Source: Gammaproteobacteria bacterium
GTDB taxonomy: Bacteria; Pseudomonadota; Gammaproteobacteria; Pseudomonadales; Pseudohongiellaceae
Assembly (NCBI GenBank): GCA_021773355.1
Contig: JAJFKE010000028.1
Span: 1 to 64,000, forward strand
Length of the DNA: 64,000 nt
Reading direction: 5' to 3'
Part shown: positions 17,597-63,665 of the stretch, in pieces
Layout: every line of letters begins with the position of its first letter
Numbering within the stretch: the stretch's first letter is position 1
Position numbers and translations under genes: made by a program
Notes under the pieces: model-generated
Told to the model about the DNA's origin: nothing
Database searches by the model: none
What the model saw: the letters and a program-made list of their open reading frames with translations, nothing else

Positions 17597-17601
17597 GTCC
17601 C

Positions 17602-21030: not shown

Positions 21031-21051
21031 TCATCACTGAAATCACATTAT

Positions 21052-21135: not shown

Positions 21136-21219
21136 TATATATATTGAAAATTGGTAGTATAAGCTTCCAAATAATGGAAGTTTCTAGAATATTTTGAGGT
21201 ATTTGTATAGAATTGCTGC

Positions 21220-28265: not shown

Positions 28266-29129
28266 TTGAGTAAGATTAAATTTTCAAATGTGCTAACCAT
28301 TGCATCGCTGTGCGCACTTTTTCTTGCGCCATTCGTCACTTACTTTTTTAGTGAAGCGACATTGTCGCAACAGATTACACCCTATATTACGATGAAGGAC
28401 GCAATACAATCCCTGATAATATTGTTGTTATCAGTAATCGTAATACTCAAGATTTTTTTGGATTCTATACAAAATTTTCTGAGGTGGAGTTCTGTTTATA
28501 GCGAGGTCGAACACAGCTATTTCTATTCGGCCGATAAGTCCGTAACGATTCGTTCCTCGTATTTATTTTTGAACGGCAGGAATAACGACCTTGCTACTCT
28601 CCCAAAGGAAAATTTATTATGGCATGAAACTATTAGCAGCAAAGCAATATTCTATCGCCTTTTCTATAGGGGATATTTACAAGATAGAGTGATACATTCA
28701 GCACCGCCTCAAATTTATGCAAGCAACGTAGAACGCGAAGGAGAGTTTCTTAGCTGGGAACCTAGAGTGAAACCACCTTTGAGGAAAAAAGAACGAATAG
28801 GCTTCATGGTGGAGATCTATACACCTAACACGGAAGCAAAAGCCTTTACTTCGGGAGGAACAACCTTGGGTTTCGGTGTGCACCATCGCACAAAATCTGT
28901 ACAAGTAACCGCCTATGCTCCATTTGGCTACAAATTTGTACTTGTGGACCCAATAATCTCACTGAGAGATGCCGAGAGCTTGGACGAAGTTCCCATAAAC
29001 CGGTCCAAACTAGCGTTTCCGGAAATATCGCCCGATAGTTCCGTGCTCACATACCGTGTTAAGAAACCCAAGGAAGGGTTTCGTTACTGGGTTCATTATA
29101 GATTTGAGGAGCACTCCATTGACAACTAA
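28266..29129 (+). CDS. Hypothetical membrane protein
   Basis: 287 residues from a TTG start preceded by GATGAGGATA. Two N-terminal transmembrane helices (about 8-28 and 48-68) are followed by a long soluble domain, beta-rich, without recognised motifs. The topology suggests a cytoplasmic C-terminal sensor or effector domain. It is followed, with an 11-base overlap, by the cysteine-cluster gene. It sits in the low-GC block between the two cupin 3' ends, so it is likely accessory. I do not recognise the family. Confidence 0.6.
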   Translation: MSKIKFSNVLTIASLCALFLAPFVTYFFSEATLSQQITPYITMKDAIQSLIILLLSVIVILKIFLDSIQNFLRWSSVYSEVEHSYFYSADKSVTIRSSYLFLNGRNNDLATLPKENLLWHETISSKAIFYRLFYRGYLQDRVIHSAPPQIYASNVEREGEFLSWEPRVKPPLRKKERIGFMVEIYTPNTEAKAFTSGGTTLGFGVHHRTKSVQVTAYAPFGYKFVLVDPIISLRDAESLDEVPINRSKLAFPEISPDSSVLTYRVKKPKEGFRYWVHYRFEEHSIDN

Positions 29130-37268: not shown

Positions 37269-38242
37269 CACAGGGTCAGGTCTCCATTTGCACGTCGTGG
37301 GTGCGGATAATGCGGCTTATGGTGGTGTGGCTCAGGTTGAGGAAGTCACCGATTTCTTGTTGCGTATAGTGGCAACTGCGATAGGCCATGATGATGGATT
37401 GTTCGCGTGAGGCATATCGCTCAAAGTACCATTCGATGGACCGTTTTACCGGGCCATGTTGAATCTTGGGTATACCACGGAGTTTTGCGCCCTGGGCCAT
37501 CTTGCACTGCATATTTTCGACGAACTCCTCGCTACCCAGATAAACTTGATTGCGCAAATTTTGCCACGGTGGGGGCTGGTCTTTTCCGTCGCTAATAAAC
37601 TGTTGGTAGGCGAATTGACTCTGCATCTTGTTCCGGTCGAACAGGGACAATAGCGTGTCCGTCTGCATCCAATTTGGTGTTGCGACCAGGCCTGCGGTCG
37701 CCCGGTAACTACTCCAGGGCCACTCTTCTGCCTTATGCGTCATGCCTGCCCGGACGGGATTAAGTACAACGTATCTGCATAACTCCAACAAGTAACTTTC
37801 CGCCTGAACCAGAATCGCTTTGTATCGACCCTGAAATACATGCCCTACTCGCCGGTGGCGACGATTAATGAACTGCGTGTAGTTGCCGTTGAGATGGCGC
37901 ATGCCGCGACTGAGGGTTGCATCGCCAGTCTCGATTACCAGGTGATAGTGATTGCCCATGAGACAATAGGCATGGCAGCGCCAGGCGTAACGGTCTACAC
38001 ACTGAGCAAGTAGCCCAAGGAATTTCAATCGATCGGCTCGATCGCGGGCTATTTCCTGCCTGGCATTTCCCCTTGCTGTAATGTGATACAAGGCACCCGG
38101 AAACTCTATTCGAAGCGGTCTCGCCATTTGCTGTTCCATCCATGGAAATGAGCAGGGAAAACAAACCTTAGATCAAGTGCAGAGAAACTCCAAGAAACTG
38201 CGCGTAGTTGTCTGCAAAATGTGCAAATGGAGACCTGACCCC
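37269..38242 (-). mobile_element. RAYT-type element, copy 2 (974 bp, intact)
   Basis: Ends CACAGGGTCAGGTCTCCATT (37269) and TGCAAATGGAGACCTGACCC (38222-38242) are inverted repeats. The element consists of the ends plus one transposase gene; a 5' leader of about 80 bp lies between the gene and the right end. The left repeat contains the gene's last codons and stop. Confidence 0.9.
37276..38139 (-). CDS. REP-associated tyrosine transposase (RAYT)
   Basis: 287 residues. The N-terminal Y1/HUH transposase domain has RPLRIEFPGALYHITARGN, the HUH pair in GNHYHLVIETG, and a catalytic tyrosine in AESYLLELCRYVVLNPVRAG. The C-terminal half adds a helix-turn-helix (YTQQEIGDFLNLSHTTISRI near 260-280). 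The last residues, HDVQMET, and the stop are encoded by the terminal repeat itself. RAYTs move REP/BIME palindromes. An alternative start at MARPLR (38127) is possible. Confidence 0.93.
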   Translation of the reverse strand: MEQQMARPLRIEFPGALYHITARGNARQEIARDRADRLKFLGLLAQCVDRYAWRCHAYCLMGNHYHLVIETGDATLSRGMRHLNGNYTQFINRRHRRVGHVFQGRYKAILVQAESYLLELCRYVVLNPVRAGMTHKAEEWPWSSYRATAGLVATPNWMQTDTLLSLFDRNKMQSQFAYQQFISDGKDQPPPWQNLRNQVYLGSEEFVENMQCKMAQGAKLRGIPKIQHGPVKRSIEWYFERYASREQSIIMAYRSCHYTQQEIGDFLNLSHTTISRIIRTHDVQMET

Positions 38243-49345: not shown

Positions 49346-50152
49346 TTATTCGAGGTAAGAAGGAGCTAGATCGAGCGTTTCAGCAAGCTCTTTGCTGTGT
49401 TCGATCCAAAAAGTAGCCCCTGTTAATTCAAGCAGAGATTCAACTTTGTCCATGGACATCAAAGTTTCCTCAATGCTGGTATTAAAAACGGGGGTTCGGC
49501 GCAATTCCCGGCTCGCCTCGAAATGGTAAAGGTCTCCCGAAAGTATCAGTGGACCAAAACGGCTGAGCTCCAAATACAAAGATTGGTGACCTGGGGTGTG
49601 TCCTGGCGTTGAAATAATTTTGACCGAGCCATCACCGAAGACATCGTAGTCTCCGCTTAAGCTTATACGATTAGAGTCTCTGAGCTGTGAATATAATTCT
49701 GGTCTAAACACCGGATTATCTTCAGGATGTTCAAACGCAGCCGTGGCCTCCGCCTCCTGAATCAACAAAGTGGACTGATTAAAAGCATTGGCGGCACCGA
49801 CATGGTCATAGTGCATGTGCGAAAAGGCAATAAAATCTATATCGGCCGGACTAATGTTCATGGCTGCAAGTTGCTGCAGAAAAGATGTCTGGTAGCGGCT
49901 ATTACCTCCGCTCTGCCCGACATCTGCAAGTGGTAAGCCCGCATCCCATACCATCAAATGATCATCATGTTTAATCAAGTAGCAAGGCACGAATAATTCA
50001 CGCACCGAGGTTTCTTCATTACTTAAACCAAATGCGGTCACATCTGGAAAGGAAAGCTGGCCGCAGTCGAACACATAGAGTTTTAAATCCGCATGCGCCA
50101 AGCTTGAAGTCAGTAACAATAGCAGAAGTAGAATCCTAGGGGCCCTAGACAT
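49346..50152 (-). CDS. Exported metallo-beta-lactamase-fold hydrolase (lactonase-like)
   Basis: 268 residues from ATG 50152; GGAG lies eight bases upstream, whereas the ATG at 50158 is too close and the frame to 50221 runs into a RAYT remnant. Signal peptide MSRAPRILLLLLLLTSSLAHA. Zinc ligands are SHMHYDHVGAAN (HxHxDH), STPGHTPGHQSL and LILSGDLYHFE, the set of AHL-lactonase and AttM-like enzymes. The substrate could be a lactone or ester; export suggests an extracellular or periplasmic one. Confidence 0.88.
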   Translation of the reverse strand: MSRAPRILLLLLLLTSSLAHADLKLYVFDCGQLSFPDVTAFGLSNEETSVRELFVPCYLIKHDDHLMVWDAGLPLADVGQSGGNSRYQTSFLQQLAAMNISPADIDFIAFSHMHYDHVGAANAFNQSTLLIQEAEATAAFEHPEDNPVFRPELYSQLRDSNRISLSGDYDVFGDGSVKIISTPGHTPGHQSLYLELSRFGPLILSGDLYHFEASRELRRTPVFNTSIEETLMSMDKVESLLELTGATFWIEHSKELAETLDLAPSYLE

Positions 50153-50218
50153 TGACATTCTCCTATTAGATTGATCAACGTAATCGGTAAATACGTAATA
50201 AATTAGCCTGGGATAAAT

Positions 50219-50252
50219 CACAGGATCAGGTTTCCATTTGCACGTCGTGGGT
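50219..50252 (-). pseudogene. RAYT left-end remnant
   Basis: CACAGGATCAGGTTTCCATT and the following 14 bases (CACGTCGTGGGT) match the RAYT left terminus with two changes. Homology ends after about 34 bases. Confidence 0.7.
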
Positions 50253-50761: not shown

Positions 50762-51982
50762 ATGTATCCAGAGTTGAATACAACATTAAGGGAGATGAAG
50801 GAGTACGCCTCAAAAGCGCTGTCCGAAAAAGCTAAATTAATGCCTGGCGTTGATAATCTAAGTATCGGAGAGCCGGATTTCGGACCTCCCGAGGAACTAT
50901 TACCAGGAATATTAGATGCTGTCTTAAACCAAGCAACATTTTTGGATTCAGTTAACAGATACGAAAGCTCTAGGGGGTCATTAGAATTACGGGTCGCCAT
51001 AGCAAATTGGTATAACAGCCACTATGGCTTAAATATTGACGCGGAATCGGAAATTCTTGTTACACATGGAGGAGTCGAAGCAATAGCACAATCTATCCTG
51101 AGTTGCACTCCATCGACGGGCGCGATAGCTGTAACAAATCCATCATACATGTTATATGAAAGAAGTATCTCCACGCTTGGCCGTAAGTCACTATCATTGA
51201 CGCGACCAACCGGCGGCAATGAATATGAGAAGTTATTCTCCCTCGAAGAAAATCGTAAGTTGCTGACCGAAGCTGATGCACTAATAATAAATTCACCAGA
51301 AAATCCAACTGGCTATGTTCTAAGCGATGAGGATTGGTCCACCCTAAAAACGAATGCTGACAAATTCGGTTTGTGGATTATTCATGACGAAGTCTACGAT
51401 GCTATGTCGTTCGGTCGAAAACATTATCCCGCGATATCCAGAGAAGATCTGCATGATCGGACGATAATGGTAAATAGCATGTCTAAGAAATTTGGAATTC
51501 CCGGCCTGCGAATAGGCTGGATGATCTCGAATGCTGGCGTGATTGACTTAGCCTGTAAGTCGCACGACTATCTATATTTGGGAGTCAATATATTGTTTGA
51601 GAAGGTAGCAACTCACCTGTTATCAGCTCCTAAAATTGATGAATGGCTTTTTCGTATCAACAATATGTTAGAAGAACGCATCGAAAATGCCATGACTAGA
51701 ATGACACCAGCGCTGGGTTACGAATGGCCTCGTAGGCCAATGGGAGGAATGTTTCTATTCCCAAATGTGAGCAAGCTATATAATGCATTGCCCGAGGCCT
51801 ATAGAAAGGAAAGCATTGGTGAGAGCGTCGCCTCGTACTTACTTTCTGAGAAAGGCGTTTCAACAGTTCCAGGTATCATTTATGGAGATCAATGTTCGGA
51901 TTACATCAGACTAGTGCTATGTACTTCCGATGAGGTGTTTGTCCGTAGCATTGAGAAGTTAACCGCAGGGAATGTGCCATGA
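50762..51982 (+). CDS. PLP-dependent aminotransferase (class I/II fold)
   Basis: 406 residues from ATG 50762, chosen over 50720 because GGAG sits eleven bases before it. Fold type I landmarks: LSIGEPDFGPPEELLP, NRYESSRGSLELRVAIANWY, VTHGGVEAIAQSILSC, INSPENPTGYVLSDEDW, IIHDEVYDAMSFG and the lysine loop SMSKKFGIPGLRIGW. The type covers aspartate/aromatic aminotransferases and, in clusters, enzymes making non-protein amino acids. It is the first gene of an operon with a dioxygenase, an NRPS and an ATP-grasp enzyme, so it likely prepares an amino-acid building block. Confidence 0.93.
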   Translation: MYPELNTTLREMKEYASKALSEKAKLMPGVDNLSIGEPDFGPPEELLPGILDAVLNQATFLDSVNRYESSRGSLELRVAIANWYNSHYGLNIDAESEILVTHGGVEAIAQSILSCTPSTGAIAVTNPSYMLYERSISTLGRKSLSLTRPTGGNEYEKLFSLEENRKLLTEADALIINSPENPTGYVLSDEDWSTLKTNADKFGLWIIHDEVYDAMSFGRKHYPAISREDLHDRTIMVNSMSKKFGIPGLRIGWMISNAGVIDLACKSHDYLYLGVNILFEKVATHLLSAPKIDEWLFRINNMLEERIENAMTRMTPALGYEWPRRPMGGMFLFPNVSKLYNALPEAYRKESIGESVASYLLSEKGVSTVPGIIYGDQCSDYIRLVLCTSDEVFVRSIEKLTAGNVP

Positions 51983-52103
51983 CTTTCTAGTAATGATTGC
52001 TCCTCTATAAATTTAGCGGAATAAGAGGAAATTATTCTTGCTGATATAACAAGCATTCGAAAGCATAATGAAGTAAAGAACACCGAAAAATGGCGCAAAT
52101 TTT

Positions 52104-52952
52104 GTGATATTGAGAAATCATCGCGATCAATTGGAAAAATTTGGATTCGTGGAGCTTCCAGGCTCATTGTCGCCATCCGACATTTCACGTCTCGAATATT
52201 TTTATTCCAAATTCTATGAAAAAAGTAAGTCAATACTGTATGAAATAAGGGATAAAGCCACTACTATCTCGCAGTACTATTTGAATTCCACTGACAACCT
52301 CATAGTCGTTCCGGAAGAGTTAGATTCAAGTCTTATAAGCAGGATTGAGTACTTAACGGGAGCAAATGCGGACTTTCGTGGATTCGTTATTGACAATATT
52401 CAGCCAACAATCGAAGCGATAGTAGGGAAGGAACTGAATATATTCAAAGATAAGTGCAATCTTAAGCTCCCTGGGAGCGATGGTTTCCCCCCTCATCAAG
52501 ACTATATTGCTTATCAACACTTTCCTCCTGACTACAACATAACCGCCATGATACCTATTGACGACATGGATATCGAAAATGGCTGCGTCCAGTTCGCGAA
52601 AAATTACAGAGAATCGGCCTTTGTCAATTCAGCCAATGTAGAAAATATAGCTAGTGGCCAGCGAATATTTGATACTGATGATCGCGGAGGTATAGTAGCT
52701 GAGGTTGTGACTAAAATTAAGTGGCAGGCATCTACTCCGAATGCCGGAGATATTGTCCTGTTCGACCACTTTATTCCTCATTTCTCACAAGCTAATATGA
52801 CGCAGAGCCCGCGCAGAGCATACTTCATTACGTTTTCACTGGCGGAACAGGGAGATTGGTATGAATTTTATTTTGCGAATAAGAGAGAAAATTACAACTC
52901 GCCAAAATTTCACGTAGCAAATCCTACGGGCAATAAACCCTCCAGATCGTAA
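52104..52952 (+). CDS. Phytanoyl-CoA-dioxygenase-family (Fe(II)/2-oxoglutarate) oxygenase
   Basis: 282 residues from GTG 52104 (an alternative TTG is at 52110). The PhyH pattern is visible: KFGFVELPGSLSPSDISRLE at the N-terminus, iron ligands in FPPHQDYIAYQ (H-x-D) and a distal histidine in FDHFIPHFSQANMTQSPRRAYF, with the arginine of RRAYF as 2-oxoglutarate contact. Such enzymes hydroxylate or desaturate amino acids and peptides in secondary metabolism. 121 bases separate it from the aminotransferase. Confidence 0.88.
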   Translation: MILRNHRDQLEKFGFVELPGSLSPSDISRLEYFYSKFYEKSKSILYEIRDKATTISQYYLNSTDNLIVVPEELDSSLISRIEYLTGANADFRGFVIDNIQPTIEAIVGKELNIFKDKCNLKLPGSDGFPPHQDYIAYQHFPPDYNITAMIPIDDMDIENGCVQFAKNYRESAFVNSANVENIASGQRIFDTDDRGGIVAEVVTKIKWQASTPNAGDIVLFDHFIPHFSQANMTQSPRRAYFITFSLAEQGDWYEFYFANKRENYNSPKFHVANPTGNKPSRS

Positions 52953-52967
52953 CCGTAGAATCTCTGA

Positions 52968-54338
52968 ATGTTTATTCGAACAAACATGTCAGCACGCATA
53001 GGAGAAACCGTCAGTGCGGTGGAAGGGCTAAATTCACCTTTAGCGCGAAGCTGTCATGTTGGAAATAATACTTCAAATGTTTGGGGTATGCTGTCGATGT
53101 TCCCGAATTCCTTTCTACTCCTCTACGACCATACAGTTTATTCGTTAGACGAAAACTGCTTTCCCTGGCTAGTTTTAGACTCCAAAGGGTCAATCGCAAA
53201 TTGTTACGACCACAAAGGAAATCCCGCTTCTTCGTGGAATGGGTGCGCGGTTAATCATCACCTAAAGACTATGGAAAGAAAACCAAACATATTGAATTAT
53301 GGAATATATGCCGAGCACGAGGGCGTCGATCTGTTCACTTGGCACTACAATCAAATTAGTAGTCTATCAAATAGGCTAAACGGCAGTGAGGTTCTAACTG
53401 ATTCCCAAGCTTTACTTCAAGATATTGAATTATTGTCATCCGTAATTACCTACTCAGCCGAGAATAAAGCTTTAGACCTTCTATTTAACAGGTGGGTATC
53501 AATATCGAAACGAGGCAACACAACAATCCAATCTATCAGTGACATAGCTTACAAAAACGGCGAAGTCCAAATTACGGTTCACGATCATGGCAAGGTATTT
53601 TCTGGCAGGGCAGATAAACTTATTCACCTCTTCGTTGAAAATATTAGTATTGTAGCAAACAGAACATCGGCAGGGGAAAGGGCTGTGATAAGTGGGTATC
53701 CATGGTTTACGCTTGGTTTTGCCTATATTGTTACAACAATGAGGGAGGCGAAATTGTCTCCCGCACAAAAGGATTTCTATCATGCCGGAGGCTCTTCAAG
53801 TCAGTACTATATAAATAACCAAGTATTTCAGAGTGAATTCACCCGGTTGTGGACTCATTTGGGTAATGAGGGATTCCTTCCTAGTGATGGCCAGCTTAGT
53901 ATGATCCCCACATTTTGCTGTCAACTATTCGCAACAAGCCAGCAAGGGAAATCGTATATTAATCAATTGCTCGATATTTGGGACGATTTTTGCTCCAGGA
54001 ATGCCGAGCAAATTGAGCTGCTAGTCGATGAACTTTCGGTGGCGACCAGCCCGTCTGATGCCGCGGCTAGCGCAACAACGCTTCTAAATCCAAACCAGAA
54101 GAAAGAAATAAAAAGTATAGTATTACTATTCAATGGCGTTGACAAAAATAAACTCCCGGTGGCACACATTTCACAAGTAAACAGAATTAACTACAATAAA
54201 TTTGGCGCACCTATGAAGTGCTTTTTTCAAACAGATTTCTTTTGGCCGCGTGATCTGCAAAACTATTCATGGGCGAACATTGAATTATTTCTAAAAGTTA
54301 TAAGTGAACTATTCTGTGACGACCCCGAGGCCTGGTAG
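52968..54338 (+). CDS. Unrecognised protein of the biosynthetic operon (456 aa)
   Basis: Sequence of 456 residues with no family I recognise. The ATG at 52968 lacks a good ribosome binding site; 52986 (MSARIGE) is a plausible alternative. Points to note are cysteine/histidine-containing segments (ARSCHVGNNTS, NCYDHKGN, NGCAVNHHLK, FCCQLF), YAEHEGVDLFTWHYNQ, and an end with KCFFQTDFFWPRDLQNYSWAN. No signal peptide and no obvious transmembrane helix. Located 15 bases after the dioxygenase and 5 bases before the NRPS, so it is co-translated and must act on the same product. It could be a new tailoring or peptide-forming enzyme. Confidence 0.75.
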   Translation: MFIRTNMSARIGETVSAVEGLNSPLARSCHVGNNTSNVWGMLSMFPNSFLLLYDHTVYSLDENCFPWLVLDSKGSIANCYDHKGNPASSWNGCAVNHHLKTMERKPNILNYGIYAEHEGVDLFTWHYNQISSLSNRLNGSEVLTDSQALLQDIELLSSVITYSAENKALDLLFNRWVSISKRGNTTIQSISDIAYKNGEVQITVHDHGKVFSGRADKLIHLFVENISIVANRTSAGERAVISGYPWFTLGFAYIVTTMREAKLSPAQKDFYHAGGSSSQYYINNQVFQSEFTRLWTHLGNEGFLPSDGQLSMIPTFCCQLFATSQQGKSYINQLLDIWDDFCSRNAEQIELLVDELSVATSPSDAAASATTLLNPNQKKEIKSIVLLFNGVDKNKLPVAHISQVNRINYNKFGAPMKCFFQTDFFWPRDLQNYSWANIELFLKVISELFCDDPEAW

Positions 54339-54343
54339 TTTTA

Positions 54344-57300
54344 GTGAAGATTTCCAGATACTATCCGAAACTTCCCAGCGAGAATTATGAAATTTTTTTG
54401 GCATCGAGTACCAGGTATTCTTTGTGGAATAGCCTGCTCTATGCGGCGCAAATAAATCCGGACCGCATTGCCATAGAATGTAAAGAAGAAATAACCTACA
54501 AGCAATTATATCAATGTGTAGAAGAACTAATTTCTAAAATCACAATTGAAAAAAATACTGTTGTTCTACTGATTTATCCAAGAGGAATTGAATTCGTTGT
54601 GGCAATGTTGGCGGCGATCGCCCGAAACTGTATTTTTGTACCAATTGATTCATCCATTAGTGCTTCGAAATTACGGCACATTAACAAAGAATTGCAGCCG
54701 AGTTCTATACTGATCTCCAAGCAAGATATGCCAGATAATCAATTTGAGGAGTACCTAAGCGATTTTCGAGAATGCCAGGGTAACGAGAAGCATATCCACC
54801 TAAAGCGATCTGTCGCCCCCCATAACATTAGTAAACTGTGTTCCGATGGATACATAATGTATACGTCAGGGTCAACTGGAAGACCTAAAGGAGTAATACA
54901 AAGCCAATCAGGGCTACTTTCCCAAATCAGAAACTATATACAATCAATAAAAATCAGTTCTAACGACCGACTATCTTTGTTCGCACCAATTCCAACCGAT
55001 GCGGCTTTTATGGACATATTCGGCTCGCTGTTGAGTGGGGCAACATTGTGTATCTGCACTATATACGCATCAAATTTTCCAACAATCGCCAACTGGGTAG
55101 AACGAAATCGAATATCCATATTTCACTCAATCCCAACCTTGTACCGGTATTTCGCGAACTGCTACTCCAATTCGAATAGTGAACGCTCTCTCCGACTTAT
55201 AGTTCTAGGAGGGGAACCTGTACGAAAACAGGACCTGGAACTATTTCAAAGAAAATTTCCTGCATCGGTTATTCTGTGCAACGGCTACGGGCCTACCGAG
55301 TGCACAGTCGCATTACAGTGCTTTTTCGAGATAGATGAGGATAAACACCTACCGAATGAAATCCCTATTGGCTGGCCAGTTGAAGGAGTAGGTTTATCTT
55401 TTGTCAGCTATAGCTCTACGGACACAGGAAACACGGGCGAACTGCGACTGAAATCAAAAAGCATTGCCCTTGGTTATGTTTCGATGGAACAGGCTTCAAA
55501 TTCGATTGAACTTTCTACTGAGGATTCATTCTACAATACCGGAGATTTAGTTCGTCAAGACAGAATTGGAATTTACTATTATGTCGGGCGAATAGATTCA
55601 CGATTTAAGGTGAATGGCAATTGGATTAATAGTTTGGAAGTTGAACGTGATCTTATCGAAAAACTTCAGCTTGAGGACTGCGTGCTAATACTTGATGAGA
55701 GCGATAGTCTTCAGGCGTTTACCGTTTTCATAAAACCCCCTTCCACGAATGTCCTAGACGATGAGCACTGGATTTCATTAGTTCGAGAGTTCTCTGATTC
55801 AGACATCCCCATCAAGACGATTACAATTGAAACTGAATTCCCTAAGACAGATAGCGGGAAAATTGATCACATAAAACTTGCTCATTCGATCAGAAGTAAA
55901 AACCCTCGTCTCCCTACCAACACCGATATTGCAAGAATATTTTCTGAAGCACTTAATTGTTCCGTCAATACCGAAACAATCATAACGGCGCAGATCGCAC
56001 TGAACTCAATTGACATACTCGAAATACTGGGAGAAATAGAAACAAAACTCGGTGTTAATGTAGCACTATTTGAATTCTTTGATTTCCCCTCAGCCGATCT
56101 TTTAGCCCAGCACCTGCTGTCCCGGGAAAAGCAAAACAAGATACGGCCTCCAAATCAATACCCGCCCATCGAATACTCTAGCAGTTTTGACTTGTCCCCA
56201 GGACAGTTCAGATATTGGGAAAGGAGAGATGAATTGGATCACCGGGCTTGGAACTTGATTTATATCACTGAATTCAAGGCCAATATCAGGAAGCAGGATA
56301 TAGAGGTAGCTCTGGCGAAAACAATTCAGGCTTCCCCTCTCTTAACTGCAAGAATACTAGGAGGCTCACAACCAAGTCACGACATTAGCCCGTGTGAATT
56401 CAACAGTTTTCGACTTGATACTTCAAGCAACGTTCAGCTGGCAACAGAATCGTATAGGGAAATGAAACTTCCATTGGATGAAGGCTCTTTATTTCGTGCA
56501 ACACTTGTCGAGGATGAAGAGGATAGGATTCACCTGGTTTGGAGTGCACACCATATTGTATTTGACGCATGGTCACGAAATCTTTTCACAAATCAGTTGC
56601 ATTTGAATTTGTGCAATAGAGAGAATGACGGTTTTGGAGGTTTTGAATATCGAGATTTTGTTGATGAACGCATCGAAGAAATTGAAAGCTTGGATATAGA
56701 GTCTAGACTGAAACTGCTGGAAGCATCTATCAACCATCACGATAACAGAATACCCGTCAACAACTCCGCTTCTGAATGTGGTGTAACTTCGGAAAAATCC
56801 CATGCTAGATACAGATTATTGAGTAAAGCGTGTAGAAAGTTGAAAGTATCTCCATTCACATATTCTTCTATGGTGTTTAGAGTTTTCATTCTGCTCATAA
56901 CTGGCTCGGAATCATCCCTATTGACTACGGATCTGACTCAGAGATCTAGAAAAAAATGGAATAATGTTATTGGGCTATTCACAGAAGTTCTCATCCTCCC
57001 TAATACAATAGCTATAAATTCTTCGTTTGAAGTGAATGTTCTAAATGAAGCAACTCGCTTGACCTTCGCTTTAAAAGAATCCCATTTACCACTAAAAAAT
57101 GTTTTTGACAGCATTCTTCCGGGAGAGCTAAAGAATTACCATTGCCATCTCCCTTTCGCTATTTTTTATGAAAAAGAGAATTTGGATGGAGAACACGATA
57201 GTGTGTGGGCTATTACCAGGGAAGCTAGTGAATCAGCTACTACCAGGCCGTTGATTCTGGTAGTTTCAGAAGAATCCGATACCATTACTCTTAGCCTCGA

Positions 57301-57424
57301 AAGTATGCAGGGATACTTTTACAAACAAGACCTCGAATTACATCTTAAGTCTCTATGTTCTCTATTTGATATTTTTTTGCAAGATTCTGCCACACCAATA
57401 CAAAAACTACTTCGAGAATTCTGA
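54344..57424 (+). CDS. Nonribosomal peptide synthetase, A-PCP-C
   Basis: 1026 residues from GTG. Adenylation domain with A3 YTSGSTGRPKG near 172, A5 GYGPTECT near 315, A7 YNTGDLVRQD near 397 and A10 lysine DSGKIDH near 505. An aspartate in IPTDAAFMDIFG matches the Asp235 position that binds alpha-amino groups. A carrier domain follows with Ser in ALNSIDILEILGE near 552. The condensation domain has HHIVFDAWS near 737 and IGLFTEVLILPN later. No thioesterase follows. The A-PCP-C order puts the C domain after its own carrier, so it likely offloads by condensing the loaded acyl group with a free amine. One base precedes the ATP-grasp gene. Confidence 0.95.
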   Translation: MKISRYYPKLPSENYEIFLASSTRYSLWNSLLYAAQINPDRIAIECKEEITYKQLYQCVEELISKITIEKNTVVLLIYPRGIEFVVAMLAAIARNCIFVPIDSSISASKLRHINKELQPSSILISKQDMPDNQFEEYLSDFRECQGNEKHIHLKRSVAPHNISKLCSDGYIMYTSGSTGRPKGVIQSQSGLLSQIRNYIQSIKISSNDRLSLFAPIPTDAAFMDIFGSLLSGATLCICTIYASNFPTIANWVERNRISIFHSIPTLYRYFANCYSNSNSERSLRLIVLGGEPVRKQDLELFQRKFPASVILCNGYGPTECTVALQCFFEIDEDKHLPNEIPIGWPVEGVGLSFVSYSSTDTGNTGELRLKSKSIALGYVSMEQASNSIELSTEDSFYNTGDLVRQDRIGIYYYVGRIDSRFKVNGNWINSLEVERDLIEKLQLEDCVLILDESDSLQAFTVFIKPPSTNVLDDEHWISLVREFSDSDIPIKTITIETEFPKTDSGKIDHIKLAHSIRSKNPRLPTNTDIARIFSEALNCSVNTETIITAQIALNSIDILEILGEIETKLGVNVALFEFFDFPSADLLAQHLLSREKQNKIRPPNQYPPIEYSSSFDLSPGQFRYWERRDELDHRAWNLIYITEFKANIRKQDIEVALAKTIQASPLLTARILGGSQPSHDISPCEFNSFRLDTSSNVQLATESYREMKLPLDEGSLFRATLVEDEEDRIHLVWSAHHIVFDAWSRNLFTNQLHLNLCNRENDGFGGFEYRDFVDERIEEIESLDIESRLKLLEASINHHDNRIPVNNSASECGVTSEKSHARYRLLSKACRKLKVSPFTYSSMVFRVFILLITGSESSLLTTDLTQRSRKKWNNVIGLFTEVLILPNTIAINSSFEVNVLNEATRLTFALKESHLPLKNVFDSILPGELKNYHCHLPFAIFYEKENLDGEHDSVWAITREASESATTRPLILVVSEESDTITLSLESMQGYFYKQDLELHLKSLCSLFDIFLQDSATPIQKLLREF

Positions 57425-57425
57425 A

Positions 57426-58331
57426 ATGGCCAACGTAGCCATTGTCTATGTATCAAAAGAAGACACTCCCTTTAAAGAAGCCATATCTGAATCGTTTATT
57501 TGCGATCTTGCCAGTATGCTGTCAGCTAAGGGGCACATTCAGGGCATTTTCAAATTTTCGCCATCAAGCGAATTTCTTAAACATATTTCTATGTTTAGGC
57601 CAGATGTGGTGCTTAATCTGGCTTATGGCTATGAGATGGACGGAATTCGTATAGACCAGGCCGCTATAGCAAATTCACTTGAAAAAATTAATTGCAGGTT
57701 AATTGGCTCTAATAGTTCTGCCCTATCCCTCGTTCAGGACAAAGTTAGGTGCTCTGAAATATTAAGATCACAGGGCGTTCGAGTAGCACGATCAATAATT
57801 ATGGGAGACGATTTGCCACCGACTTGGAAATGTATTATTAAGCCTCGATTTGGGGGGTGCCATAGGGACATCAGAATTAGCGAGTACTCTCAACTATCCG
57901 AAGACGATTTCGACTTGTCGAAGTACATTGTTGAGGATTACATTTCCGGGAGGGAGTTCACAATTGGCTTGTATGAGAGCGATGCTGGTTTGACTGCATT
58001 TAAACCATTGGAAATTGAATTTGCGGCTAGTGAAAAAATACGGATTTTGGGAGATCATCACCCTGCTGTTAGCTATGCTCACCTTGATAGAGACGAATTC
58101 CACCTCCGGGATACTGCAAAATCCGCCTTTTCAATATTGTCTCTGTCGGATTACTCCAGAATGGATTTCCGTGTAAACGACGATAATGAAGCATTCCTCA
58201 TCGATGTTAATGGCTTACCAAATTTGGATCCCGAGCGCAGCTTTCTCCCAATGATTGCACTGGAAAATGGTGTTGCTATCCAAGATCTAATGATTTCGAT
58301 TATTGATCACAAATTGAGTTCAGTATTGTAG
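57426..58331 (+). CDS. ATP-grasp ligase, D-Ala-D-Ala-ligase-like
   Basis: 301 residues from ATG 57426, one base after the NRPS stop. ATP-grasp features: IIKPRFGGCHRDIRI (usual KPxxxGSS replaced by GGCHRD), YIVEDYISGREFTIGLYE, and SRMDFRVNDDNEAFLIDVNGLPNLDP, where the metal ligands are D-x-N in place of the common E-x-N. Enzymes of the class join a carboxylate and an amine through an acyl phosphate. It probably makes a peptide bond to an amino acid derived from the pathway. Overlaps the convergent gene by 25 bases. Confidence 0.93.
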   Translation: MANVAIVYVSKEDTPFKEAISESFICDLASMLSAKGHIQGIFKFSPSSEFLKHISMFRPDVVLNLAYGYEMDGIRIDQAAIANSLEKINCRLIGSNSSALSLVQDKVRCSEILRSQGVRVARSIIMGDDLPPTWKCIIKPRFGGCHRDIRISEYSQLSEDDFDLSKYIVEDYISGREFTIGLYESDAGLTAFKPLEIEFAASEKIRILGDHHPAVSYAHLDRDEFHLRDTAKSAFSILSLSDYSRMDFRVNDDNEAFLIDVNGLPNLDPERSFLPMIALENGVAIQDLMISIIDHKLSSVL

Positions 58332-59767
58332 CGCTCTGCAATTTCCTCCCGTGGTATAGCGAAGTCATTTATAAGTGAGCCAACTTCTGGGTAAGCTAGG
58401 CTTATATGAATATGCAAATTAGTAATCGATATATGAATGCATTCCGAACTATTGATTGATGTGGTCAATTCTCGCAAAGTAGCTAATTCTAGCTTTCGCA
58501 TTTTTGAGTCTGAGATGGTACCCGTCTCCATTAGATGCATCGCCTTCTTAAACTGAACACATAGCCTAAAATGATCCCTTAATATACACAGGACTGCTAG
58601 TTCATGATGCATGCGGAGAAGATCATCTGTTTCACTCAAAAAACCAATATCTTTACCGAAAAACCCCTCCATATCAGTAAAAAATTTCCCCACTAGATTA
58701 ACTACCACTTCATCCTTAATAAGAAACCAGCCATATCTCTTGCTCCGATAATCCATTGCCGCCGCATATTCTCCTTCTGCTGATCTAACAAATTTCTCGT
58801 TGATATCGCCTATCTTTATCCAATAGAAGCCCTCGGAAGGAATTTCTATAGTCGAACACGAAATTAATTCTAAGTGTCTTTTAGCGTCTAATAAGAGCTG
58901 ATCATGGGTTTCCACAAGCTCCGACATGTTAGTTGATATCGCTCTCACAATTTCGCAGAGCTGCTGATCACTTGCAGCAGTTTCGAAATATAGTGCTCTA
59001 ATATTACTAGGCGTCCATCTCAACTCATTGCACGGAACCCCCTGATAGTGCGGCGTATCAGAAGCCTGACTAATGAAACTCAAATTTTCAAAAGTTTCAT
59101 CGGGCCATGCTACAGAGGCCCAGGTCGGAGTAAATTTGATTTTTGATTTGCCAAGCTGGCTTTCTGAAGCCCGCACAGCATGGTTTGCATAACGCTCCGA
59201 TTGGCCACCAATATTCCTTTTGAGATAAGTCGACAGCGTAGAATAGATTGGTTCGCCCAAGCTCGGTACAATCGAGTCAAAAAATGAGCGCTCGAGATCC
59301 GGTCGACTTTTTAGTAGCTCCAACAAGCGAGCTTTTTGTATCTTCGTTCGCTCAAATAGTGTTCCTGCCCCCTTCACTTCCAGTTGCAATTCCAACTTCC
59401 CATTCCCCCAGCCTAGTGACGATAGATCCAAAAACGCAACATCCTTGACCATGCCGAGCTGGTTGACCGAAGCAGGGTTGATCAGGAATGTTCGCCCTCC
59501 TGTCATCTGAGCTTGTACTTCAACTCTCTCATTCTGTGTCGAAAGTGCTGGGGGCGTAAACGAATATATTGGTGTGGTGGAACCAGAAAGACCCGTATCT
59601 ACATAACGCAAATAATTCTTGCCCAACTCCTTCACCCTTTCATCTGCTGGACATACATGCAAGTTTACTTTCAAGAAGCGATCATCATAATGTTTCCAAT
59701 ACATCACTTCCGTGTTGTCGGGGAGAAAACTACCTTTGTAATAGCCCATATCGATTTGCCACCGCAT
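58307..59767 (-). CDS. Unrecognised protein convergent to the biosynthetic operon (486 aa)
   Basis: 486 residues. No family is recognised. The N-terminus MRWQIDMGYYKGSFLPDNTE may start at the internal methionine instead. Two halves are apparent: residues 1-250, mixed alpha/beta with several histidines and acidic residues (FDSIVPSLGEPIYS, ELRWTPSNIRALYFE), and a helix-rich C-terminal half (LLRMHHELAVLCILRDHFR). It ends inside the ATP-grasp gene (58307-58331). Composition is as AT-rich as the cluster, so it probably arrived with it, perhaps as an immunity or regulatory factor; this is inference only. Confidence 0.65.
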   Translation of the reverse strand: MRWQIDMGYYKGSFLPDNTEVMYWKHYDDRFLKVNLHVCPADERVKELGKNYLRYVDTGLSGSTTPIYSFTPPALSTQNERVEVQAQMTGGRTFLINPASVNQLGMVKDVAFLDLSSLGWGNGKLELQLEVKGAGTLFERTKIQKARLLELLKSRPDLERSFFDSIVPSLGEPIYSTLSTYLKRNIGGQSERYANHAVRASESQLGKSKIKFTPTWASVAWPDETFENLSFISQASDTPHYQGVPCNELRWTPSNIRALYFETAASDQQLCEIVRAISTNMSELVETHDQLLLDAKRHLELISCSTIEIPSEGFYWIKIGDINEKFVRSAEGEYAAAMDYRSKRYGWFLIKDEVVVNLVGKFFTDMEGFFGKDIGFLSETDDLLRMHHELAVLCILRDHFRLCVQFKKAMHLMETGTISDSKMRKLELATLRELTTSINSSECIHISITNLHIHISLAYPEVGSLINDFAIPREEIAERYNTELNL

Positions 59768-59875: not shown

Positions 59876-60499
59876 TTATCCTGGGCGGCCCATGCTGAAT
59901 AGTGACTCGCCATCCACCCGAGTATAGTCGTTATAACCCAACCTGCCGATGACCAGCATTTTCATCACATCAACCAAGCCTTCCTCAGTGATAAACTCGT
60001 CATCTATGTGAATCCCCACCACCTCGCCAAATATAACTCTGTAGGCATCTGCCTCAGTCCAGCCGGGAATCTCCACGCTCTTCAGGTAACGGCACTCAAG
60101 ATGTACCGGCGCTTCTTTAATGCGCGGGGCATTAACTAGTTTGGAGGGGATAGCGGTCAAGCCCGACAGGCTTATCTCATCACAATCCGGGGGCAGTGCC
60201 TCTGATGATTTATTCATTTTCTCACGCGTGTCCCAGGTGGCCAGATTGCAAACAAACTCGCCCATGGATTCAATATTCCTTACCGAGTCTTTCAGGCCAT
60301 CTGCGGCCGAACCCACGCCACCGGAAAACATGACAGTGGGCGGGCTGTAACTCACTGCATTGAAAAAGCTGTAGGGTGCGAGATTGCGTACGCCCGTTTT
60401 ATCCGTGGAGCTGATCCAGCCGATGGGTCGCGGGATGATCAAACTGTTGAAAGGATTTTGGGGCAGTCCGTGGTTTTTCTTCTTGGGTTCGTAAAACAT
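59876..60499 (-). CDS. Flavin reductase-like FMN-binding protein
   Basis: 207 residues of the split-barrel flavin reductase family: LIIPRPIGWISSTDKTGVRNLAPYSFFN at the start (in pieces) and SYSPPTVMFSGG, NIESMGEFVCNLAT, then FGEVVGIHIDD, the usual strand-turn set. It likely binds FMN and reduces it with NAD(P)H, or acts on an aromatic substrate with a partner oxygenase. No partner is adjacent. Start ATG 60499. Confidence 0.9.
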   Translation of the reverse strand: MFYEPKKKNHGLPQNPFNSLIIPRPIGWISSTDKTGVRNLAPYSFFNAVSYSPPTVMFSGGVGSAADGLKDSVRNIESMGEFVCNLATWDTREKMNKSSEALPPDCDEISLSGLTAIPSKLVNAPRIKEAPVHLECRYLKSVEIPGWTEADAYRVIFGEVVGIHIDDEFITEEGLVDVMKMLVIGRLGYNDYTRVDGESLFSMGRPG

Positions 60500-60614
60500 A
60501 GAGATACAATTCTAAAATTGATTGACGAAAGCAAAGCAAAGAGCGGAACGAATCAATGTTCTGTGGCTTCTACCGCAAGTGGGAAGTAACTAGTTTTTAT
60601 AATTTGGTAACAAA

Positions 60615-61142
60615 TCATCGTTCATCGCGCTGCAATTCTTTCTTGAATTGCTTGAATTTCTTAACATAGATGTCAGCGCTCTTAAGCAAGTCTGCTTGCT
60701 GTTCAGCTGATAAAGTCTTAACCACTTTAGCAGGCGAGCCCATCACCAAGGAGCCATCGGGAATCTCCTTGTTTTCGGTAACCAGGCTGTTCGCCCCTAT
60801 CAAGCAATTGTTACCTATCTTGGCGCCGTTAAGAACTACCGCATTAATTCCAATAAGAGAGTTATCACCGATAGTACAACCATGCAGCATCGCCTTATGG
60901 CCTATGGTAACGTTCTTACCGATTGTCAGTGGGGAGCCGTAATCGGTGTGCAGCACCGCGCCGTCCTGTACATTAGAATTTTCACCGACGGTGATTAATT
61001 CATTGTCACCGCGTATGACGGCGTTAAACCAAACGCTGGCGTTGTTCTTCAACCTTACTAAGCCAATCACATCGGCACTGTCGGCGACGAAATAGTCATC
61101 ACCTTGAATATCCACTTCAAACTCACCCAAACGGTACAACAT
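60615..61142 (-). CDS. Gamma carbonic anhydrase-like hexapeptide protein
   Basis: 175 residues with the left-handed beta-helix hexapeptide repeat, visible as [26 protein letters not shown] (in pieces). Three candidate zinc histidines lie in VLHTDYG, IGHKAM and MLHGCTIG. Members of the family (YrdA, CaiE-like) are trimeric; carbonic anhydrase activity is not certain. A C-terminal helix ([18 protein letters not shown]) follows. ATG 61142. Confidence 0.9.
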
Positions 61143-61213
61143 TATTTACTCCGTAATTCTATTTCCAATTCCAGGCTTATTGGCGCAGAATCATTGTTCG
61201 CAAAAAAGACAAA

Positions 61214-61363
61214 GCGAGTGTAACTCAGTTGGTAGAGTACTAGCTTCCCAAGCTAGTTGTCGCTAGTTCGACAAGCGCGAAGCGCGCAGCACGACCGAAG
61301 GTCGCCCGCAGGGTGAGGAATTTGGCTTAGCCAAATTCCGAATGACCCTCGTCGCCCGCTCCA
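61214..61363 (+). tRNA. tRNA-Gly(CCC)-like gene with an insertion in the T loop
   Basis: The first 58 bases fold like a tRNA: acceptor GCGAGTG, D arm ACTC/GAGT, anticodon arm CTAGC-TTCCCAA-GCTAG (anticodon CCC), then GCTAG and TTCGA. After about 61271, some 75 bases of palindrome-rich sequence intervene before CTCGT, CGCCCGC, T and CCA (61346-61363). Acceptor pairing has one A-C mismatch at pair 4 and one G-U; the T stem has one mismatch. The insertion contains a 23-base dyad, GGAATTTGGCTTAGCCAAATTC in outline. It may be a tRNA pseudogene or an unusual tRNA disrupted by a small mobile palindrome. Confidence 0.55.
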
Positions 61364-61397
61364 ATTTAGTAGTAAAAAGGATAGATCTATTTTTTGT

Positions 61398-61829
61398 TCA
61401 CGAACGTGGGTCCAACCTTAGAAAATAGCGCGGCGGAAACCCAGTTCGAAACCTAAACTCAAATCCAAAACTATAAACCTCGCGTATGTGTTCTTCTTCA
61501 GCTCCTTCCAAGGAGACGGCTAAGTATGGCTGAAATGAATCCTCACCCGGCATCTTTACTTCCACATTGGGATTAGCCAATGCCTGTCTATACCAGGCGC
61601 GGGGCCAATGATTGGCAGCAATATAATTATTGCCGTCAATCTGTTCCAAACGCAGCACCCGTTCGTGACGATCGTTGTCTTCGTTGAAGGTTGCTATGAC
61701 TAATGAGGTACTGCCCTGCGGTTGGTTGTATCCGAGCCTAGCTTCGAACCAGACGATGGAACCTATGTAGGCCAGGAACAACACACCTGCTGCGACCAGT
61801 GACCACTTTAGGGTCTTGTTGTTTTTCAT
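61398..61829 (-). CDS. Membrane-anchored split-barrel protein of the F420/nitroreductase-like type
   Basis: 143 residues with one N-terminal transmembrane helix (WSLVAAGVLFLAYIGSIVWF) and a small beta-barrel domain (STSLVIATFNEDNDRHERVL, NYIAANHWPRAWYRQALANP) of the DUF385/deazaflavin-dependent nitroreductase-like fold. Cofactor binding is not certain in Proteobacteria. Periplasmic or cytoplasmic side not decided. Same strand as the PQQ dehydrogenase, 63 bases downstream of it. Confidence 0.65.
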   Translation of the reverse strand: MKNNKTLKWSLVAAGVLFLAYIGSIVWFEARLGYNQPQGSTSLVIATFNEDNDRHERVLRLEQIDGNNYIAANHWPRAWYRQALANPNVEVKMPGEDSFQPYLAVSLEGAEEEHIREVYSFGFEFRFRTGFPPRYFLRLDPRS

Positions 61830-61892
61830 TATTGGTTCTCGTTATTTTATAGGTGGTGCTCGATCACACATTTTTTACATCAATCGAATTGC

Positions 61893-63665
61893 TTATGGCA
61901 AACGAAACACGTACAAGGTATTCCCACCTGCGCGCTGGCGAATCTCTGGCGTGTGTCGTCGGTAGTTAACGCCCTCGCCTGCCGCAATGGCAATATACTG
62001 CACTCCATCCACGCTATAGCTCACGGGAAAACCACCGGCCGTGGAGTTAAGAATTTGCTCCCAAAGAATGTCGCCGCTGTCGGCATCGAAGGCACGAAAT
62101 CGTCTGGCGTCGTCGCTGACAAAAACCAGTCCACCGCCGGTGGTTAACACGGAACCACCGATGCCGGCTCGTTGCCGGTAGGTCCAGCGGGTTTCACCGG
62201 TGGCCACATCGATCGAGGTAAATTGTCCTACCTGTCCGGTATCCTCAGGCCCAAGCTCGGGACTGTTTCTGGCGGATGCGTGGTGTAGGCCTACAGTGGG
62301 TGTCACCGGCCTTAGGGCGTAATTCATGCAGGTGTTATTGCTTGGCGTATACAGAGAGTTAGTCTGTGGACTGTAACCGACAGAGTTCCAGTTAATACCG
62401 CCCTGAGCAGTTGGGCACACCAGTTTCTGCTGCCCAATTTCGGTGATATCTATCTCAGGATTGGTGATGCCCTTGCGCCCTTCTATGTCCACGCCAACGA
62501 TTACGTTCTGATAGTTAGTCTCGGTTGCCCACAGGAACTCGCCAGTGGCCGCATCCAGTGTCCACACGATGCCGGGCTTGCCGGGAATACCTGTGATGAC
62601 TTTGCGTCGTTCGCTGGAGGCGATGTTTGGATTCATCCAGGACACAGCATCGGCATCGGGTGTGACTTCGGTTTCTACTATTAAACGCTCGAAGGGATGG
62701 TCCTGATCCCAGTTGCCAGCGGGAATATGTTGGAAGTACCAGGCAATTTCGCCAGTCTCTGCATCCAGAGCCAAGGTGGAGTTAGTGTACAACACATCGC
62801 CGCCCCGGGTACCGCGCTGAATTTCACCCCAGGGAATGGGCACTGCCACACCGATAAAAATAAGATTGAGCTCGGAGTCGAAACTGGCTGGCATCCAGGC
62901 CGAGCCGCCGCGGCGCCGTTCGTTGGGAACGTCTCCCCAGCTTTCACCGTTGGGTTCACCAATCTTTGGTACGGTGTTGGTACGCCACAACTCTTCGCCG
63001 GTGTCGGCATCGTGGGCAGTAATCCAGCAGCTGGTATTGATGTAGTAACAGCCGGACATGCCGGTGATAACTTTGCCGTTGAACACCTGTGGACCGCCGG
63101 AATAATGTTGGCCCACTGTCCAATCACCGATCTGTCGCTCCCAGGTGACTTCACCACTGGTGGCGTTTAACGACACTATGTAAGCATCGCGGGTGGCGAT
63201 AAGTAATTGATCTTTATACAGGGTGCCATTGCGGTTTGCGCAGGACAGCGGCGCAGCATGATCGACGGTTGGCCTTCGATATTCCCACAGCGGCGTACCA
63301 TCGGTGGCGTCCACGGCCTCGATAAAGTCACAGGCCTGGGGCAGAAACATAATGCCGTCGTGTACCAGGGGCGTGGTCTCCTGCTTGCCGGGCTCCATGG
63401 TCCAGGACCAGGCCAGACGCAGGCTGTCTACGTTATCCTTGTTGATCTGATCCAGCGGACTAAAGGCCCAATGGTTGGGCGTGCCGCGCCACATCAGCCA
63501 ATCACCTGCCGGCGGGTTTGCTAACTCTTCCAGAGTAACCGGGGTGTAGTTATCCAATAGATCCTGTTGCGCGCTGGCAATGGACATGATTGAGGCGAAC
63601 GCAATGGCAAAGGTTGCCAAGACAAGTCTGGATAGAGAATGCTGGCGAGCAGAACGGATGGGCAT
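61893..63665 (-). CDS. PQQ-dependent quinoprotein dehydrogenase
   Basis: 590 residues. Signal peptide (LVLATFAIAFASIMSIASAQ) and an eight-bladed propeller with W-docking motifs: WLMWRGTPNHWAFSPLDQIN at the N-terminus, ALDAETGEIAWYFQHIPAGNWDQD in the middle (in pieces) and AFDADSGDILWEQ near the C-terminus. This is the pattern of methanol/alcohol dehydrogenase-type quinoproteins without a fused cytochrome. It oxidises an alcohol or sugar in the periplasm and passes electrons to a cytochrome. The substrate is undetermined. Its C-terminal neighbour is the split-barrel protein. Confidence 0.93.
   Translation of the reverse strand: MPIRSARQHSLSRLVLATFAIAFASIMSIASAQQDLLDNYTPVTLEELANPPAGDWLMWRGTPNHWAFSPLDQINKDNVDSLRLAWSWTMEPGKQETTPLVHDGIMFLPQACDFIEAVDATDGTPLWEYRRPTVDHAAPLSCANRNGTLYKDQLLIATRDAYIVSLNATSGEVTWERQIGDWTVGQHYSGGPQVFNGKVITGMSGCYYINTSCWITAHDADTGEELWRTNTVPKIGEPNGESWGDVPNERRRGGSAWMPASFDSELNLIFIGVAVPIPWGEIQRGTRGGDVLYTNSTLALDAETGEIAWYFQHIPAGNWDQDHPFERLIVETEVTPDADAVSWMNPNIASSERRKVITGIPGKPGIVWTLDAATGEFLWATETNYQNVIVGVDIEGRKGITNPEIDITEIGQQKLVCPTAQGGINWNSVGYSPQTNSLYTPSNNTCMNYALRPVTPTVGLHHASARNSPELGPEDTGQVGQFTSIDVATGETRWTYRQRAGIGGSVLTTGGGLVFVSDDARRFRAFDADSGDILWEQILNSTAGGFPVSYSVDGVQYIAIAAGEGVNYRRHTPEIRQRAGGNTLYVFRLP

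What the first reader, a model, noticed from the sequence alone, without database searches (positions are those of the whole stretch)
50762..59767. Compact biosynthetic locus: aminotransferase, PhyH oxygenase, unknown protein, A-PCP-C NRPS, ATP-grasp ligase
Five tightly spaced co-directional genes combine two different amide-forming chemistries (condensation domain and ATP-grasp) with amino-acid building and oxidation enzymes. No transporter, thioesterase or phosphopantetheinyl transferase is included. The combination does not match a cluster I know, and the AT-rich composition suggests acquisition.
Basis: partly seen in the sequence, partly recalled or inferred. Interest (0 to 1): 0.88.

Follow-up and report, generated by a model that had tools for sequence, protein, structure and literature searches.

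The report
Four-ligase peptide cluster, two new families
Six neighbouring genes in this bacterium are predicted to build an unknown peptide-like compound with four different kinds of bond-forming enzyme, and two of the genes belong to very rare protein families that no model in the curated databases searched describes.

The parts
50762..51982 (+). PLP-dependent aminotransferase-fold enzyme (fold type I); alternative start 50720
   Evidence: PF00155 E 2e-41; best NCBIfam model GntC enduracididine cyclase, 212.9 bits against a cut-off of 415, so not an assigned equivalog; the PDB matches listed are ordinary aminotransferases
52104..52952 (+). PhyH-type Fe(II)/2-oxoglutarate oxygenase
   Evidence: PF05721 E 3.8e-14; best NCBIfam model methylphosphonate hydroxylase, 94.3 bits against a cut-off of 500; PDB EvdO2 E 1.3e-4 and leucine hydroxylase E 0.0056; HQD and a distal H and R visible in the sequence
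52968..54338 (+). X: 456-aa protein of an undescribed family; predicted class I aminoacyl-tRNA-synthetase (HUP) fold with HIGH-like CHVGNN (residues 29-34) and KMSKS-like NKFG (410-413)
54344..57424 (+). NRPS, A-PCP-C, condensation domain at the C-terminus (HHIVFDAWS), no thioesterase
   Evidence: PF00501 E 7e-55, PF00550 E 1e-4, PF00668 E 1e-17; 25.6% identity over 1070 columns to the NRPS of L016
57426..58331 (+). D-Ala-D-Ala-ligase-like ATP-grasp ligase
   Evidence: PF07478 E 5.8e-13, PF02655 E 8e-6; 30% and 28% identity to two ATP-grasps of L016, E 2e-41 and 9e-36; only itself found in the protein collection
58307..59767 (-). Y: 486-aa protein of an undescribed family; predicted SelO/YdiU pseudokinase fold; convergent with the ATP-grasp gene (25-base overlap)
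59876..60499 (-). right boundary: flavin-reductase-domain gene of the genus backbone (not part of the cluster)
   Evidence: present in 38 of 61 genomes of the genus, own included; in 4 of 7 fetched relatives near homologues of window 4.9-13.3 kb

Best explanation
This locus is a six-gene biosynthetic cluster that likely assembles a short modified peptide with four different ligase types: an A-PCP-C NRPS, an ATP-grasp, X (predicted class I aminoacyl-tRNA-synthetase fold) and Y (predicted SelO pseudokinase fold). Shown here: the genes, their domains, the predicted folds, and the recurrence of X, Y, A-PCP-C and Ddl-like ATP-grasp together on one Acidobacteria contig. Inferred steps: (1) The A domain would load one amino acid on the PCP. 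(2) With no downstream module and no thioesterase, the terminal C domain would release the aminoacyl group by condensing it with a soluble amine acceptor. (3) X would make that acceptor by adenylating an amino acid at its HIGH-like/KMSKS-like site and transferring it to a small-molecule amine, as MshC (mycothiol) does and BshC (bacillithiol) is thought to do (roles recalled). (4) The ATP-grasp would add a further residue through an acyl phosphate. (5) Y would activate a terminal carboxylate as an acyl-AMP, as NIS synthetases do and as is plausible for MchC/MceJ, the SelO relatives needed to attach a siderophore to microcins. (6) PhyH and the PLP enzyme would tailor a building block in this lineage only.
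Against: X has no significant Foldseek hit (best E 0.1); its fold rests on the second-look aligner. Y's Foldseek hits have low TM-scores (0.28-0.36) and rmsd 8-12 A over the whole alignment. Sequence profiles do not support either relation: A2 vs SelO E 0.007, probability 5.5%; A1 vs BshC E 0.21, worse than the unrelated control A1 vs SelO (E 0.046). Against single sequences SelO and BshC do not separate from 156 ORFs. Confidence is lower at the HIGH-like block (residues 31-40: 74) and the KMSKS-like loop (401-410: 56). X and Y are often apart: one X relative lies on a 195,583-base contig and three Y relatives on contigs of 336,451, 36,550 and 35,764 bases without an equal-length partner, and L017 has X without Y or ATP-grasp on 16.6 kb. 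The C and PCP domains score weakly (64 and 23 bits). Aminotransferase and PhyH are missing in L016. Substrates, step order and product are unknown.
Confidence: 0.42

Rival explanations
1. Y is not a ligase but a protein nucleotidylyltransferase (like SelO/YdiU) that AMPylates or UMPylates the NRPS, the ATP-grasp or a cellular target, for control or self-protection.
Against: Y lies beside an ATP-grasp in the same tail-to-tail position in the window and in L016. It lacks the C-terminal [C/U]xx end that 111 of 143 SelO proteins have (PMC3281104, passages; Y ends ELNL). The microcin SelO relative MchC acts in product maturation.
Confidence: 0.25
2. X uses aminoacyl-tRNA (like CDPS, SbzA or PEARL systems) rather than free amino acid and ATP.
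Against: CDPSs lost the HIGH motif (PMC2922099, passages), whereas X keeps H, G, N, N in 21 of 21 members and K411 in 21 of 21; BshC and LysRS score far higher.
Confidence: 0.2
3. PhyH and the PLP enzyme make a hydroxylated or cyclised amino acid (GntC-like cyclodehydration, PMC10367076, passages) that the A domain loads, and they define the product.
For: Best NCBIfam model for the PLP enzyme is GntC (212.9 bits, next 155.4). PhyH matches include a leucine hydroxylase (E 0.0056).
Against: GntC score is about half the cut-off; the PDB matches listed are ordinary aminotransferases. The A-domain pocket read by eye is D A M H V G G V A K here and D A M H V G A T A K in L016 (alignment), and L016 has neither gene, so the A domain probably loads an unmodified amino acid (the nearest code that I recall is Glu, DAWHFGGVDK; one search listed no paper with that string).
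Confidence: 0.15
4. X and Y are inert or unrelated passengers of a variable island and the pathway is only NRPS plus ATP-grasp.
For: The island also carries restriction, toxin-antitoxin and transposase genes; 16 of 20 X and 18 of 22 Y relatives have no partner of equal contig length, some on long contigs.
Against: 48 and 33 invariant columns, open frames at 31-46% and 35-42% identity, and recurrence with the same partners in L016.
Confidence: 0.08

Closest known systems
aaRS-like peptide ligase pathways (MshC; MetRS paralogues with cupin; CDPS), framework of Aravind et al. 2010 (PMC2922099; abstract and passages seen)
   Same: class I aaRS-fold enzyme used for small-peptide metabolites, in several cases beside ATP-grasp or condensation-domain ligases; PLP enzymes as neighbours
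   Different: X has no detectable sequence relation to BshC or any Pfam family; no cupin or lysine N-hydroxylase here; a SelO-fold partner is not in the passages seen
SelO/YdiU pseudokinases and the microcin maturation protein MchC/MceJ (PMC3281104, passages; PMC12409994, passages)
   Same: predicted fold of Y; a KGxG lysine and two spaced acidic residues; MchC shows that a SelO relative serves in a biosynthetic cluster
   Different: no SelO Pfam match, no C-terminal Cys/Sec end, no TDN or DYG motif; no HlyC-type partner (MchD/MceI) among the cluster proteins; MchC itself was not compared
NIS synthetases (AcsD, SbnC, IucA)
   Different: no IucA/IucC Pfam match; Y is 66-100 residues shorter than the listed chains
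Lincosamide synthetase (PMC4351081, passages)
   Same: NRPS A and PCP parts joined to unusual, family-less proteins and thiol-metabolism relatives
   Different: its LmbE is an Mca/MshB relative, not an aaRS fold; LmbD was not compared with X or Y
SNA pathway: PEARL after C-domain chain reversal (PMC11212132, abstract in listing and passages)
   Same: an assembly line whose product is extended by a separate amide-forming enzyme
   Different: extension there by a LanB-like PEARL; no such Pfam match here

Membership tests
class I aminoacyl-tRNA-synthetase-fold (HUP) ligases such as MshC and BshC, for X | HUP Rossmann catalytic fold | tested here: met
class I aminoacyl-tRNA-synthetase-fold (HUP) ligases such as MshC and BshC, for X | HIGH-type signature (HxG[H/N]) in a strand-to-helix loop near the N-terminus | tested here: met
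   HVGNN with H30, G32, N33, N34 in 21 of 21, between strand 25-30 and helix 37-44; a variant of HIGH, place in the active site not measured
class I aminoacyl-tRNA-synthetase-fold (HUP) ligases such as MshC and BshC, for X | KMSKS-type loop | tested here: inconclusive
   N410, K411, G413 in 21 of 21 in a low-confidence loop; position relative to the active site not measured
class I aminoacyl-tRNA-synthetase-fold (HUP) ligases such as MshC and BshC, for X | sequence homology to BshC | tested here: not met
   hhalign against 15 BshC sequences, E 0.21; one of 15 ranks first but the rest mix with 156 ORFs; X is not filed as a BshC
class I aminoacyl-tRNA-synthetase-fold (HUP) ligases such as MshC and BshC, for X | ATP-dependent amino acid ligation | not testable with these tools
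   needs assay
SelO (PF02696), for Y | SelO kinase-like fold | tested here: met
SelO (PF02696), for Y | match to the Pfam SelO model | tested here: not met
   none of 23 members lists PF02696 at E <= 10, within HMMER's filters; hhalign E 0.007, probability 5.5%
SelO (PF02696), for Y | TDN and D[Y/F]G motifs and C-terminal [C/U]xx | tested here: not met
   TDN and DYGP in 7 of 7 fetched SelO; at the places that I take as equivalent the 23 Y members have KDE/KDQ/KDT/KDM and [F/Y]xDxE; Y ends ELNL; so Y is not filed as a SelO
MchC/MceJ, for Y | sequence similarity to MchC; HlyC-type partner | not tested
   no MchC sequence was fetched; no HlyC domain among the cluster proteins
D-Ala-D-Ala ligase, for the ATP-grasp | over the curated cut-off of an NCBIfam Ddl model | tested here: not met
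   best 65.1 bits against 243; Pfam domain cut-offs are passed
NRPS module | A, PCP and C domains over Pfam cut-offs | tested here: met
   C motif HHxxxD and PCP serine visible in the sequence
GntC enduracididine cyclase, for the PLP enzyme | over the NCBIfam equivalog cut-off | tested here: not met
   212.9 against 415 bits

The most novel reading that the evidence does not exclude
X and Y found two new ligase families: X is the first member of a HUP (aminoacyl-tRNA-synthetase-fold) clade that builds amines for terminal condensation domains, and Y a SelO-fold clade that activates carboxylates; together with ATP-grasp and A-PCP-C they form a four-ligase peptide pathway unlike any described assembly line.
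Probability: 0.35. Interest if true: 0.88.

Novelty: new variant of a known kind. Interest (0 to 1): 0.72.

Why it matters
Two protein families with 48 and 33 invariant columns, about 20 members found each and no match in the curated libraries searched recur with the same NRPS and ATP-grasp partners in this genome and in an Acidobacteria MAG. If X is an aaRS-fold amide ligase and Y a carboxylate-activating SelO-fold enzyme, four evolutionarily unrelated ways of activating a carboxylate serve one compact pathway. It would also test whether the SelO fold, known for protein AMPylation and microcin maturation, is a wider ligase scaffold. The 9-kb size makes heterologous expression and gene-by-gene deletion practical.

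Tried and rejected
Family libraries: single-sequence Pfam, NCBIfam and PDB searches gave nothing for X and Y. With every alignment member scanned, each family listed matched one member only, best E 0.016 for X (Pfam, NCBIfam) and 0.0073 for Y (Pfam, NCBIfam), taken as chance. PDB profile searches gave two sequences each at E 0.3 or worse. PADLOC gave nothing for X, Y or the ATP-grasp, so a defence system was dropped. PHROGs was not searched.

Sequence proof of the fold relations: A2 against 7 SelO and A1 against 15 BshC proteins by hhalign were not significant, and the wrong pair A1 vs SelO scored better than A1 vs BshC. In a rank test among 156 ORFs of fetched loci plus these 22 proteins, SelO ranked 2, 9, 16, 21, 26, 27 and 93 for Y, and BshC 1, 9, 14 and lower for X. 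The relations are therefore claimed at fold level only.

More neighbourhoods: X or Y was sought in 97 relatives (X), 297 genomes of the MAG's phylum (Y), 398 of the window's phylum (Y), 72 of the MAG's order (X), 390 of the window's order (X), plasmids and viral contigs; only the window's genome and HKST-UBA06 answered. The protein search for Y scored only the 7,992 best candidates, and both searches need shared five-residue words, so 20 and 22 are lower bounds.

The ATP-grasp search found only itself, probably because of the word filter, since L016 has two relatives at 28-30%. A substrate call for the A domain from the recalled Glu code was not confirmed by the literature search and is kept only as a remark. 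A PEARL-type cluster was rejected because no LanB domain is listed. The adjacent flavin reductase was rejected as a cluster gene by synteny. Promoter and terminator scans were at chance level. A phosphopantetheinyl transferase elsewhere in the genome was not searched for. On checking this report I added and lowered the main confidence from 0.45 to 0.42 (and raised the passenger rival from 0.07 to 0.08), because X and Y relatives on long contigs without an equal-length partner had not been weighed.
Full report
What is there. The window lies in a 5.08-Mb genome (G000, contig C21); no call names the organism. Between 50,762 and 58,331 five + strand genes follow each other with gaps of 121, 15, 5 and 1 base: a PLP aminotransferase-fold enzyme, a PhyH oxygenase, a 456-aa protein (X), an A-PCP-C NRPS and a D-Ala-D-Ala-ligase-like ATP-grasp. 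A sixth gene (Y, 486 aa) runs on the - strand from 59,767 to 58,307 and overlaps the end of the ATP-grasp gene by 25 bases. The G+C of the six genes is 0.406-0.432, against 0.463 for the window.

Boundaries. The flavin-reductase gene right of Y (59,876-60,499) is found in 38 of 61 genomes of the genus, own included. I fetched 20-kb surroundings of seven of these and compared them with 55 window ORFs. In 4 of 7 (L055-L058) the genes 59,876-63,665 lie in the same stretch as homologues of window genes between 4.9 and 13.3 kb, in differing order, and no gene of 13.5-59.8 kb matches. In two of these (L055, L057) the next matching gene after the flavin reductase, about 1.6 kb on, is the homologue of 12,334-13,320. 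In the other three (L059-L061) only the flavin reductase, with at most one further gene, matched. So window 13.4-59.8 kb looks like a variable island with Y as its last gene (inference). The left neighbour (49,346-50,221) has none of its window neighbours beside it in 7 of 7 fetched relatives. The island also carries type I restriction, AbiE and transposase genes.

X and Y are rare families. The searches found 20 relatives of X and 22 of Y among 5.8 billion proteins, the window's own copies left out; these are lower bounds, since the search needs shared words and scored only the 7,992 best candidates for Y. Identity to the window copy is 31-46% and 35-42%. Scans of every member against Pfam and NCBIfam gave only single-member chance matches, and profiles found no PDB sequence below E 0.3. 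X has 48 and Y 33 invariant columns, so both look like enzymes (inference).

Do they belong together? The genome scan found two X loci, both in the Acidobacteria MAG HKST-UBA06. One contig (L016, which contains L010) holds, in order: Ddl-like ATP-grasp (+), Y (-), GSH-S/RimK-like ATP-grasp (+), a second Ddl-like ATP-grasp (+), a protein with a partial AMP-binding match below the cut-off, A-PCP-C NRPS (-), X (+). The tail-to-tail ATP-grasp/Y pair is the same as in the window, and that ATP-grasp is the best of the three matches to the window's (30%, E 2e-41). Of ten frames of L016 scanned, none is an aminotransferase or PhyH; left of the cluster lie an acetyl-CoA hydrolase part, a cation efflux protein, an ECF sigma factor and a kinase-TPR protein. 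The other contig (L017) holds X beside an ABC transporter, a KS-AT-DH-KR-PCP-C protein and a protein with luciferase, AMP-binding, FkbM and PCP domains; Y is absent there (one search finds one Y in the genome) and none of the five further frames scanned is an ATP-grasp. Three further X/Y relative pairs have identical longest-contig lengths (11,519; 8,176; 4,967). In a jitter trial three or more such matches came up in 0 of 20,000, two or more in 3, one or more in 537. That these are the same contigs is inferred from length; only the 16,724 pair was read. Identities of X and Y over the five pairs correlate (r 0.94; 3 of 120 permutations, the observed one included). Against: 16 of 20 X and 18 of 22 Y relatives have no equal-length partner; most contigs are short, but one X relative (195,583 bases) and three Y relatives (336,451, 36,550, 35,764) lie on long ones. 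So X and Y are partners in five cases (two read, three inferred from length) and are also found apart.

How it likely works. Shown: the domains. Inferred: the A domain loads one amino acid; the terminal C domain, with no module or thioesterase behind it, hands the aminoacyl group to a soluble amine; X and the ATP-grasp make or extend that amine; Y activates a carboxylate. Support for an X-C domain link is that in all three loci read (window, L016, L017) X is adjacent to an assembly-line protein that ends in a C domain. The A-domain pocket, read by eye from the A4, A5 and A10 motifs, is D A M H V G G V A K here and D A M H V G A T A K in L016 (alignment), so both may load the same amino acid although only the window has aminotransferase and PhyH. 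This argues that those two genes act on another building block or after loading.

Novelty. Literature searches for SelO with biosynthetic clusters (1 of 1 listed), aaRS with clusters (20 of 129 listed), PEARL/ATP-grasp/NRPS (9 of 11 listed) and aaRS-like plus ATP-grasp plus condensation (12 of 14 listed) showed no paper that, by title and start of abstract, describes this set. The nearest is Aravind et al. 2010 (PMC2922099), which predicted aaRS-like ligases beside ATP-grasp and condensation enzymes but, in the parts seen, not these families. MIBiG was not available. Hence: new variant of a known kind (hybrid nonribosomal cluster), with two undescribed families. Interest 0.72, held down because function and product are untested and the X fold call rests on one aligner.

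Noticed in passing
window 13545-22718: Type I restriction system (HsdR, HsdS, HsdM, partial HsdS) followed by an AbiEi/AbiEii toxin-antitoxin pair, beside a YgjP-like protein, at the left end of the variable island.
   Followed up: partly
window 37276-38139: 287-aa protein with an IS200-type Y1 transposase domain and a C-terminal sigma-70 region 4 match; an unusual fusion.
   Followed up: no
window 22900-24330 and 28266-29129: 476-aa and 287-aa proteins without a Pfam match at E 0.001 or a PADLOC match, near a 726-aa protein with methyltransferase domains.
   Followed up: no
L017 2246-16570: Second X copy of the Acidobacteria MAG beside an ABC transporter, a KS-AT-DH-KR-PCP-C protein and a protein with AMP-binding, luciferase-like, FkbM methyltransferase and PCP domains.
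   Followed up: partly
L016 5418-10250: Three ATP-grasp genes (two Ddl-like, one GSH-S/RimK-like) around Y in the Acidobacteria contig, suggesting a longer product there.
   Followed up: partly
genome G000, contigs C7, C8, C14, C21, C23, C25, C38, C39: 18 condensation-domain matches genome-wide, in open frames up to 5,392 aa; the window's C domain is one of the two lowest-scoring.
   Followed up: no
genome G000: No SelO (PF02696) in the window's genome, and only 2 of the 13 genomes of its genus searched have one.
   Followed up: no
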